DNA from: Sphingopyxis lindanitolerans
Lineage (GTDB): Bacteria; Pseudomonadota; Alphaproteobacteria; Sphingomonadales; Sphingomonadaceae
DNA length: 64,000 nt
Reading direction: 5' to 3'
Assembly (NCBI RefSeq): GCF_002993885.1
Contig: NZ_CM009578.1
Coordinates: forward strand, 2,331,751 to 2,395,750
In this document: piece after piece, positions 1 to 2,067 of the stretch
Numbering within the stretch: the stretch's first letter is position 1
Layout of the letters: every line of letters begins with the position of its first letter
Notes under the pieces: model-generated
Seen by the model: the letters and a program-made list of their open reading frames with translations, nothing else
What the model was told of the DNA's origin: nothing
The model's database searches: none
Program-made: the position numbers and the translations under genes

Positions 1-558
1 CCGTTCGTCCGCGACCAGGCTGTCGTCGGGCAATCGCACGGCCGCGTGGATGATCCCGCGGCTGTCGACGATCCGGTGCCGCGAATCGAACGCGCCAAAG
101 CGAAAGGCCACGGCCGAGCCGGGCCGAACATGCAGGCTCGTGCGGATCGCGGGCGCCGCGCTCTTCGGCCACACGCGATCCAGCGCGTGGATCGCCCGGC
201 GCGCGAGCGTGTCGTCGGCCGGATAGAGGGTCGCGATCTTCCCGACCTGCTCGGCTCCGCCTTCGCCGGCGTTGATCGCGGCGATCGCATCGAGCGAGGC
301 CGGAAGCTTGAAGGCTATGCGAAGGTCCGCCAGCAGCGGCGCCAGCGTGCGGGCAAAGACAGCCGCCTCGCCGACCGCGACGGCGACATGCACCTTCCAG
401 CCCTGCGCGACATCGGGCGCATCCAACGGCGCGTGGAACTGCCAACGACAGCTTCCATCCCGCCATTGGCGCACGGCCCAGTCGCCGCCGAGCTGGTCGC
501 GTAAAAAGGAAAGCGCTTCTTCATAATCATGAAGAAGCGCCGTCCGCCCCGACAACAT
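1..558 (-). CDS. LanKC/RamC-like lanthionine synthetase, N-terminal part (runs off window)
   Basis: Partial gene: 186 codons are open from the ATG at 558 to the window edge, and the C-terminus lies outside. An in-frame TAG sits two codons upstream, so this is the first possible ATG. Residues 53-62 (GWKVHVAVAV), 81-86 (IAFKLP), 106-116 (GKIATLYPADD) and 152-157 (FRFGAF) match the pattern of the N-terminal domain of class III lanthipeptide synthetases, which dehydrate and cyclise Ser/Thr/Cys peptides. In that family a kinase and a LanC-like cyclase domain follow; here they cannot be seen. The start is 16 bases after the stop of the small peptide gene 575-751, so the two are probably co-transcribed. 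The domain match is by eye; a decayed or stand-alone domain is possible. Confidence 0.72.
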   Translation of the reverse strand, partial: MLSGRTALLHDYEEALSFLRDQLGGDWAVRQWRDGSCRWQFHAPLDAPDVAQGWKVHVAVAVGEAAVFARTLAPLLADLRIAFKLPASLDAIAAINAGEGGAEQVGKIATLYPADDTLARRAIHALDRVWPKSAAPAIRTSLHVRPGSAVAFRFGAFDSRHRIVDSRGIIHAAVRLPDDSLVADER

Positions 559-574
559 CGGAGTCTAGCGAAGT

Positions 575-751
575 TTAGTGGCGGGTTGCCTGGCAGGTAT
601 GCCAGGGACAGCGGTGCCCGGCGTGAAGATCATTATCCTCGTCCGACGCGGCAAGAGCGGACACGGCCTTCAAATCGATATCGCCGCCTGAAAGCATCCG
701 TTCCTTCACGATCTCGAATTCGCGTCGCATCATGTTCAGATTGGTTTGCAT
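575..751 (-). CDS. Putative RiPP (lanthipeptide-like) precursor peptide, 58 aa
   Basis: Small peptide gene directly upstream of the LanKC-like gene. The chosen ATG (751) has a strong Shine-Dalgarno, GGAGG, eight bases upstream; an in-frame ATG at 799 would give 74 residues but lies beyond that site. Residues 1-42 are charged and likely helical, as expected of a leader. The tail from residue 43, HAGHRCPWHTCQATRH, has two Cys (48, 53), two Thr (52, 56), one Trp (50) and five His. Co-directional position next to a modifying enzyme, a leader-like N-terminus and a Cys/Thr-rich tail all fit a precursor. Oddly, each Cys precedes its nearest likely Thr partner. No leader cleavage site is obvious. The precursor role is inferred from context and composition. 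Confidence 0.65.
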   Translation of the reverse strand: MQTNLNMMRREFEIVKERMLSGGDIDLKAVSALAASDEDNDLHAGHRCPWHTCQATRH

Positions 752-870
752 TTCAAATTCCTCCAACAAGGTTTGCGACCCGAAATCGGAAGATTTCAAT
801 TGGAGAATGTCAACTTAAGTTACAGGATGTCAACCCCGATATCGTTTCGCGCCCTCGCGGAGGAGGAATT
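752..870. promoter_or_regulatory. Divergent promoter region between peptide gene and P450
   Basis: 119 bases separate the two divergent starts. The octamer ATGTCAAC occurs twice on the plus strand, at 807-814 and 827-834, exactly 20 bases apart. Read on the minus strand each copy contains TTGACA, the sigma-70 -35 consensus, so one or both may be -35 elements for the peptide operon; no good -10 is visible at 17 bases. Two helical turns of spacing would also suit a dimeric or tandem-binding regulator. Plus-strand AGGAGG at 861-866 is the ribosome binding site that points to the TTG start of the P450. Confidence 0.4.
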
Positions 871-2067
871 TTGCCAGACATATTGGCGCCGCTGCCGTTC
901 ATGGACGCGGGCTTCAAAAGCCGCAGCATCGACGCGGTCCGCCACCTTGCCGCCGCGCAGGGGCCGCTCTTCAAATTCGCGCTTCCGTTCGGCGGAGAGG
1001 CCTGGCTGGTGGCGAACCATGGGCTTTCGAGCGGCCTCCTGGCCGATCCCCGGCTTTCCAAAATATCGCCGCTGCGCGATGCGGCCGAGGCGGGGCCGCA
1101 TCGGCTCTACCGTCATCTGCTGGTGACCGACCCGCCCGACCATATGCGGCTTCGCCGTCAGATCCGTCACGCCCTGGCTGACTGGACGAGCGCCAGGATC
1201 GAGACGCTGGCGCGCGCGATCATCGCTCGCCGTCTCGCGACCTTCGACCGCGACGAGGCGAGCTTCGATCTGGTGGCGCGCATCGCCATGCCCGCGGCGC
1301 TCGAAATCGCCTGCACGATCGTCGGCATTCCGCCCCGCGACATGGAAAAGATACACGTCTGGAACGACATGCTGACGCGATCGGATCTCGACGGCGAAGA
1401 CCGGGCGAGCGAGATTGCGGAAGAGATTGAACGCTATCTGGCGGCGCTCGCCGAAACGGATGCCATAGGGTCAGGCAACGGCGCGATCGCGACGCTTGGC
1501 CGCGCCGCGTCGGCGGGCGACCTCGACAATGGCGAAGCCATGGCGCTTGCCTATCTCCTTCTCTCGGCGGGCTACGAAACCACCGGGCACCTGCTGTCTT
1601 CGGCGGTCTGGTTGCTCGTCGGCGATCGGAAAATCTGGCAGACGATCGCGCAGGATGATGCGGTCGCCGCCCGCGCCGTCGAGGAATGTTTGCGGTTCAA
1701 TCCGTCGCTCGAACTCGCCACGCCGAGATATGCACGCGAGGATCTCGACATAGCGGGCACCGCGGTTCGCAAGGGCGACCTCCTGTTTATCGCCCTTGGC
1801 GCCGCGAACCGCGACCCGGCGGTCTTTGCGGCCGGCTCGGCTTTCGATTGCGCGCGGTCCGGACCCGTTCACCATCTTTCGTTCGGGCGCGGCCCGCATG
1901 TCTGCCCGGGCGCAGGCATCGCCCGCGTCGCGTCGCGCACCATCTTGCAGGAACTGGCGCGCCATTTTCCGAAACTGGGCCTGCCGGCCGGTCATGAACC
2001 CCAATGGGTTCCGGGCCTCGTGATGCGCGGTCTCCGCTCGCTCCCCGTCGTCATCGACGGCGAATAG
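871..2067 (+). CDS. Cytochrome P450 (bacterial class I type)
   Basis: Haem-thiolate monooxygenase, 398 residues from a TTG at 871 that follows AGGAGG by four bases; the next in-frame ATG is at 901. The open frame extends much further upstream but has no ribosome site there and would overlap the peptide gene. All P450 signatures are present: I-helix AGYETTGH at 233-240, the ExxR pair E272/R275, and the haem loop FGRGPHVCPG with Cys345 as thiolate ligand. There is no membrane anchor, so it is soluble and needs an external ferredoxin and reductase, not seen here. It is divergent from the putative lanthipeptide operon, which suggests it may oxidise or cross-link the peptide; that role is inference from position only. 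Confidence 0.9.
   Translation: MPDILAPLPFMDAGFKSRSIDAVRHLAAAQGPLFKFALPFGGEAWLVANHGLSSGLLADPRLSKISPLRDAAEAGPHRLYRHLLVTDPPDHMRLRRQIRHALADWTSARIETLARAIIARRLATFDRDEASFDLVARIAMPAALEIACTIVGIPPRDMEKIHVWNDMLTRSDLDGEDRASEIAEEIERYLAALAETDAIGSGNGAIATLGRAASAGDLDNGEAMALAYLLLSAGYETTGHLLSSAVWLLVGDRKIWQTIAQDDAVAARAVEECLRFNPSLELATPRYAREDLDIAGTAVRKGDLLFIALGAANRDPAVFAAGSAFDCARSGPVHHLSFGRGPHVCPGAGIARVASRTILQELARHFPKLGLPAGHEPQWVPGLVMRGLRSLPVVIDGE

What the first reader, a model, noticed from the sequence alone, without database searches (positions are those of the whole stretch)
1..2067. Possible new RiPP locus: lanthipeptide-synthetase-like enzyme, short Cys/His/Trp-rich precursor and a divergent P450
Seen: a 58-codon gene with a strong ribosome site, 16 bases before a gene whose first 186 residues carry the N-terminal landmarks of LanKC-type synthetases, and a P450 reading away from both. 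Known: class III lanthipeptides pair a small precursor with LanKC, and P450s cross-link aromatic residues in some other RiPPs. Inferred: the three genes form one pathway joining thioether and oxidative chemistry. I do not know a described family with this combination in Sphingomonadales.
Basis: partly seen in the sequence, partly recalled or inferred. Interest (0 to 1): 0.87.

Follow-up and report, generated by a model that had tools for sequence, protein, structure and literature searches.

The report
Widespread lanthipeptide-like family with fixed core
At the edge of this window lies a small gene cluster that probably makes a ring-shaped modified peptide whose last 13 residues are nearly the same in very distantly related bacteria, which points to an unstudied natural product with a fixed job.

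Summary
Read whole in the window's own genome, the cut gene is an 876-residue lanthipeptide synthetase with lyase, kinase and LanC-type domains. The 58-codon gene is a real precursor: its core HRCPWHTCQATRH, changed at only 3 of 13 positions while codons drift, stands just upstream of the synthetase in all eight loci of this clade that were examined (three Sphingopyxis, Azohydromonas, Azoarcus, a proteobacterial MAG, Nitrospira, Gimesia); a 32%-identical relative, L004, lacks it. A protein search gave 89 precursors, all with C-P-W-x-T-C-x-[AG]-T, though it favours the core. The constant companion is not the P450 (5 of 8) but a PhyH-type dioxygenase beyond the window edge (8 of 8); TauD is in 5 of 8. 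The synthetases form their own clade, keep a C/C-H zinc triad and miss the class III and IV cut-offs. Most likely product: two methyllanthionine rings with Cys before Thr (C48-T52, C53-T56), then hydroxylation and variable tailoring. No held paper contains the core strings searched. No chemistry was measured.

The parts
1..558 (-). First 186 codons of the lanthipeptide synthetase (LanKC/LanL-like); the rest lies left of the window (whole gene L002:13678-16308, 876 aa)
575..751 (-). Precursor peptide gene, 58 codons, ATG start
   Evidence: homologs; synteny
578..616 (-). Core HRCPWHTCQATRH (codons 46-58); H46, C48, P49, W50, T52, C53, A55, T56, R57 and H58 are the same in 8 of 8 loci
   Evidence: codon table
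760..764 (-). Shine-Dalgarno GGAGG of the precursor gene
   Evidence: sequence
752..870 (.). Divergent intergenic region between precursor and P450 genes
871..2067 (+). Cytochrome P450, probable TTG start at 871

Best explanation
A lanthipeptide-like RiPP pathway. Shown by sequence: precursor with variable leader and fixed core, three-domain synthetase with intact lyase and zinc-cyclase residues, PhyH dioxygenase in all eight loci, P450 and TauD in five of eight each. Inferred: the kinase domain phosphorylates T52 and T56, the lyase eliminates phosphate to give dehydrobutyrines, and the zinc cyclase adds C48 and C53 to make two side-by-side methyllanthionine rings (C48-P-W-H-T52 and C53-Q-A-T56) in which Cys precedes Thr. 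PhyH then hydroxylates a conserved core residue (best guess His or Pro); P450, TauD and, in Sphingopyxis, a sulfotransferase add optional changes. Leader removal and export would use enzymes outside the cassette. The fixed core under variable tailoring suggests a secreted accessory peptide with one conserved target or ligand; this last step is the weakest.
For: Domains. Lyase K55/H57/K84/K107/R153, kinase H341-D343-K345-N348 and D360, cyclase C733/C776-H777 invariant in 29 of 29 relatives; the cyclase residues align with WCHG/CHG of LicM2 and WCYG/CHG of a LanC in the PDB. Core in 8 of 8 loci not chosen by their core (own; six through the synthetase; L054 through the P450). At the 9 invariant positions other than Trp at least two codons are used; 160 synonymous against 54 non-synonymous differences in 364 codon comparisons, the latter at 3 positions only. 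89 of 89 precursors keep C48, P49, W50, T52, C53, T56. PhyH 8 of 8 at 52-87% identity. Precedent: the PF05721 enzyme TsaJ is needed for His beta-hydroxylation in thiostreptamide S4 (PMC8153245, passages).
Against: No chemistry was measured. The own branch of synthetases (9 of 29) has Arg where 19 of 29 have the kinase beta3 Lys and one has Ile, so kinase activity is not assured. Neither the class III nor the class IV cut-off is reached. Three rows labelled class IV show WCQG/QCCG, not the WCHG/CHG seen here. The 89-precursor search seeds on 5-residue words, so core conservation there is partly selected for. Ring order is deduced only from where Ser/Thr and Cys stand: own has no Ser/Thr in the ten residues before C48, but 65 of 89 precursors do (most often at -4, 31 of 89), so there an ordinary Ser/Thr-first ring to C48 is possible. 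No protease or transporter lies in the Sphingopyxis cassette.
Confidence: 0.67

Rival explanations
1. The cyclase joins His rather than, or as well as, Cys to dehydrobutyrine (histidinobutyrine), giving a copper- or metal-binding peptide like noursin; H46, H51, H58 and free thiols are the ligands.
For: Core rich in His and Cys; noursin is a precedent for a LanKC making a His-butyrine link and binding copper (PMC10206099: abstract, introduction, first part of results and the prevalence section read).
Against: H51 is Q or D in two of 8 loci; H58 is I in 9 of 89 precursors and H46 is Y in 2, while both Cys and both Thr never vary. The zinc cyclase favours thiol chemistry. Noursin's labionin uses two Ser and a Cys; the own core has no Ser.
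Confidence: 0.16
2. Not a thioether peptide: the synthetase only phosphorylates or dehydrates, and the oxygenases cross-link Trp or His, or the two Cys form a disulfide.
For: P450s make His-containing cross-links in biarylitides (stated in PMC10206099); invariant Trp; T52 and C53 are adjacent, so a usual Thr-before-Cys ring is unlikely within the own core.
Against: C733, C776 and H777 kept in 29 of 29; three of eight loci have no P450 gene in the stretch held.
Confidence: 0.13
3. The P450 and TauD belong to another pathway and only happen to lie next to a two- or three-gene RiPP unit.
For: P450 absent in 3 of 8 loci and TauD in 3 of 8.
Against: Against the window P450, cluster P450s of other genomes score 204-645 bits, any other P450 in the seven genomes searched 137 or less. 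The P450 is divergent from the precursor in own, L005, L054 and Azohydromonas. Within the genus P450 and cluster occur together in 3 of 3 genomes, own at another place than the other two.
Confidence: 0.12

Closest known systems
Class IV (LanL) lanthipeptides
   Same: Lyase-kinase-LanC architecture with zinc site; best NCBIfam match (303 bits)
   Different: Below the curated cut-off of 650; separate clade from the three class IV rows used, which show WCQG/QCCG. A 2020 survey says that no secondary modification had then been reported for class IV (PMC7268733, passages)
Class III (LanKC) lanthipeptides, including noursin LanKCHbt
   Same: Same three domains; short precursor; His in the core as in noursin
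   Different: Zinc ligands present; L-x-LQ-x-L in 0 of 89 leaders (looser [IVL]-x-LQ in 2); no Ser in the own core, so no labionin
Thioamitides (thioviridamide family)
   Same: PF05721 dioxygenase acting on a RiPP with a conserved His; a P450 in the thioalbamide cluster (PMC8153245, passages)
   Different: YcaO/TfuA core enzymes there, a lanthipeptide synthetase here; different core
Cinnamycin/duramycin (class II)
   Same: Cys-before-Thr methyllanthionine rings and a 2-oxoglutarate hydroxylase (recalled; only a listing was seen)
   Different: LanM synthetase, different core and hosts (recalled)

Membership tests
Lanthipeptide RiPP (general) | Short precursor with C-terminal Ser/Thr and Cys, next to a dehydratase/cyclase | tested here: met
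Lanthipeptide RiPP (general) | (Methyl)lanthionine in the product | not testable with these tools
   needs mass spectrometry
Class III LanKC | Cyclase domain lacks zinc ligands | tested here: not met
   C733, C776, H777 in 29 of 29; alignment with LicM2 and LanC; the class III rows show neither motif; definition from PMC7268733
Class III LanKC | Reaches NCBIfam NF038151 cut-off (575) | tested here: not met
   207 bits
Class III LanKC | Leader motif of the LELQEL kind | tested here: not met
   L.LQ.L in 0 of 89; motif from PMC10206099
Class IV LanL | Lyase + kinase + LanC with zinc ligands | tested here: met
   but the three class IV-labelled rows have WCQG/QCCG
Class IV LanL | Reaches NCBIfam NF038150 cut-off (650) | tested here: not met
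   303.2 bits
Class IV LanL | Groups with class IV synthetases in a tree | tested here: inconclusive
   Own clade of 32 rows, SH-aLRT 99; quick tree only, long branches meet
Noursin-type LanKCHbt | Core with Ser-Ser-Cys labionin pattern plus a His-butyrine pair | tested here: not met
   From the first core Cys on, the Ser/Thr/Cys order begins CTCT in all rows but one, which is CSTCT; the own core has no Ser
P450-cross-linked RiPPs | P450 joins aromatic core residues | not testable with these tools
   only linkage shown

The most novel reading that the evidence does not exclude
A cross-phylum fixed-core RiPP family (Pseudomonadota, Nitrospirota, Planctomycetota) made by a separate clade of zinc-type LanKC/LanL synthetases, with two adjacent inverted methyllanthionine rings and Fe/2OG hydroxylation throughout, whose near-invariant 13-residue core acts as one conserved pharmacophore, signal or metal ligand.
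Probability: 0.48. Interest if true: 0.82.

Novelty: new variant of a known kind. Interest (0 to 1): 0.73.

Why it matters
Lanthipeptide cores usually vary between species (recalled); one that is almost unchanged from Planctomycetota to Sphingopyxis, while its leader and tailoring enzymes change, implies a single conserved target. It would place a class IV-like synthetase family in Gram-negative bacteria, joined to Fe/2OG and P450 tailoring, with a core whose rings, in own, can only be built Cys-first or between neighbours. The three constant genes (precursor, synthetase, PhyH) are small enough to rebuild in E. coli, so structure and target are directly testable.

Tried and rejected
Class III assignment rejected on zinc ligands and cut-off. 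Metal binding by His as the main idea set back because H51 and H58 vary. Phage or plasmid origin: no match to P0001 in phages; in viral contigs no relative of the synthetase and no hit for a core pattern that admits only part of the core variants; with P0020 the 7 plasmid matches cover 45% of the query or less at 32% identity or less. Prevalence: 2 of 396 genomes of the own order have a synthetase match at 1e-40, own and the 32% relative L004 with another kind of precursor; 1 of 398 in the phylum, 1 of 299 in the family of Azohydromonas, 1 of 148 in the phylum of Nitrospira, 1 of 41 and 1 of 320 in the orders of L009 and L007, each time only the genome already known; groups were sampled and few candidates per genome scored, so misses are possible. 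One search scored only the 7992 candidates sharing most words, and one search used two peptide patterns, so more relatives may exist. Nine attempts to fold the unknown ~500-residue protein (A4) met a full queue; Pfam (5 members), NCBIfam (one weak match far below cut-off), PHROGs and a PDB profile search gave nothing usable. The careful tree was not finished; the quick tree is cited. The core strings were searched in one literature search (no paper); the nine others used family, enzyme or host terms and I saw no such family in their listings. Only open-licence full text is held, so a paper elsewhere could exist.

Full report
Observation. The window begins inside a gene on the minus strand. Its genome is held (G000, window at C1:2331751-2395750), so the region to the left was fetched (L002). 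The cut gene is 876 codons long and carries RamC_N, Pkinase and LANC_like domains. The 58-codon ORF at 575-751 (-) has a strong Shine-Dalgarno and ends 16 bases before the synthetase start. The P450 reads away; comparison with two close relatives shows indels upstream that shift the frame, so its start is most likely TTG 871.

Beyond the window edge. Two more genes follow the synthetase on the same strand: a PhyH-family dioxygenase (L002:12839-13723, PF05721 8.7e-20; best PDB match by sequence MysH) and a TauD-family dioxygenase (L002:12018-12842, 4.6e-46); then a convergent sulfotransferase-like gene. P450 - precursor - synthetase - PhyH - TauD - sulfotransferase is one unit in three genomes of the genus (Sphingopyxis by the title of L005, whose assembly counts as same genus): own, L005 and L054. 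L005 and L054 match over 11.5 kb, from the end of the P450 to beyond the sulfotransferase, so those two share a flank there. Own sits elsewhere: its neighbours (glutaminase, glyoxalase, helicase) have no match in L005 or L054. Of three other genomes of the genus examined, two (L055, L057) have glutaminase, glyoxalase and helicase in order with 1-2 kb in place of the unit; in the third (L056) glutaminase and glyoxalase were not found near the helicase. So it is an accessory unit found in at least two places. Among 80 genomes of the genus the P450 ortholog is in 3, and these 3 are the cluster carriers.

Relatives. A database search gave 28 full-length relatives of the synthetase at 36-98% identity and 56 weaker or partial ones (capped). 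A scan of one genome per species gave six loci at 37-80% (a seventh hit at 24% over part of the query was dropped). All six have a small ORF just upstream ending in C-P-W-x-T-C-x-A-T-R-H, with up to five further residues; with own and L054 that is 8 of 8. Ten of 13 core residues are fixed, and each of the nine that can vary in codon does, so selection acts on the peptide. A profile search returned 89 precursors (limit E 10, worst 5.6e-5), all with C48, P49, W50, T52, C53 and T56; residue 51 is H in 84, H46 is kept in 87, R57 in 87 and H58 in 80 of 89. That search seeds on short words and so favours the core; the eight loci do not share this bias.

Neighbours. PhyH 8 of 8; P450 5 of 8 (own, L005, L054, L006, L010); TauD 5 of 8 (own, L005, L054, L006, L008); an unknown ~500-residue protein 5 of 8 (L006-L010), not in L005, L054 or own, and in the five genomes that have it nowhere else; sulfotransferase 3 of 8. 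Limits: the contigs of L007 and L010 end about 0.4 and 1.2 kb before the precursor, so a gene there could be lost, though the whole-genome search found no cluster-like P450 in the genomes of L007, L008 or L009 (best 75, none and 135 bits). TauD was sought in the loci only. Cluster P450s stand apart from all other P450s found in these genomes. Transporters and proteases: none inside the Sphingopyxis unit; L006 has a BT1/MFS transporter between TauD and P450; further out L007 has ABC-transporter genes and L005 an M28 peptidase; not all ORFs were scanned. Control: the 32%-identical synthetase L004 of the same family has a different precursor with CC pairs, and within 18 kb nothing similar to the own PhyH, TauD or P450, and no core.

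Enzyme. Residues were tallied over 29 relatives; which residue does what is recalled from lyase, kinase and LanC literature. Lyase K55/H57/K84/K107/R153 and the cyclase triad are invariant; the kinase has HGDxKxxN and DFE in 28-29 of 29, but the beta3 Lys is Arg in nine (the own branch) and Ile in one. The tree places these synthetases in one clade apart from the class III and class IV rows used; the class IV rows carry WCQG/QCCG, the class III rows neither motif, L004 and P0031 WCHG/CHG (quick tree).

Mechanism. Shown: genes, domains, conservation, linkage. Inferred: dehydration of T52 and T56, closure by C48 and C53. These are the only Ser/Thr and Cys of the own core; because Cys precedes Thr in each pair, rings must be Cys-first unless T52 and C53 pair as neighbours. 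Against a general rule: 65 of 89 precursors have a Ser or Thr within ten residues before C48, at no fixed place (at most 31 of 89 at one position; own has none). PhyH acting on a core residue is inferred from its presence in all eight loci and from TsaJ (PMC8153245). Function is open: fixed core plus varied tailoring fits a secreted peptide with one target; the missing transporter and protease in Sphingopyxis fits less well.

Known work. A survey of lanthipeptide clusters (PMC7268733, passages) notes P450 and 2OG oxygenases in lanthipeptide clusters in general, that most LanKC/LanL are from Actinobacteria and Firmicutes, and no secondary modification then known for class IV. Noursin (PMC10206099, sections read) is the nearest His-using, copper-binding relative that I met. 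No held paper contains the core strings searched.

Odds changed on re-check: best explanation 0.70 to 0.67 and novel case 0.50 to 0.48, because of the upstream Ser/Thr count; two rivals rose by 0.01 each.

Noticed in passing
L002:11376-11990 (+); L005:14313-14930 (-); L054:5124-5735: Sulfotransferase_2-like gene convergent with TauD, kept in all three Sphingopyxis cassettes examined; may tailor the peptide.
   Followed up: partly
L006:13473-14996, L007:4099-5919, L008:14642-16360(-), L009:12579-14003(-), L010:7223-8938: Conserved ~500-residue protein without a usable Pfam, NCBIfam or PDB match, found only in these clusters in the genomes searched (GHQ and EGQ motifs; perhaps a GT-B-like enzyme, a guess).
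   Followed up: partly
synthetase residue 252 (gene at window 1-558, this part left of the window): Kinase beta3 Lys replaced by Arg in a fixed RQR motif in 9 of 29 relatives, all in the own branch.
   Followed up: partly
L004:4061-4414 (-): Another synthetase relative of the same family with a longer precursor containing TTCCATNITSCC: a different lanthipeptide cluster.
   Followed up: no
L010:11330-12871; L006:16012-17082; L006:4328-5209: Weak integrase-like match, a transposase and a zeta-toxin-like gene near the clusters, in keeping with mobility.
   Followed up: no
L006:6844-8358: BT1/MFS-type transporter gene between TauD and P450; the only transporter seen inside a cluster.
   Followed up: no
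L010:4678-7266: DMFA2_C (dimethylformamidase beta-like) protein between PhyH and the unknown protein in Gimesia.
   Followed up: no
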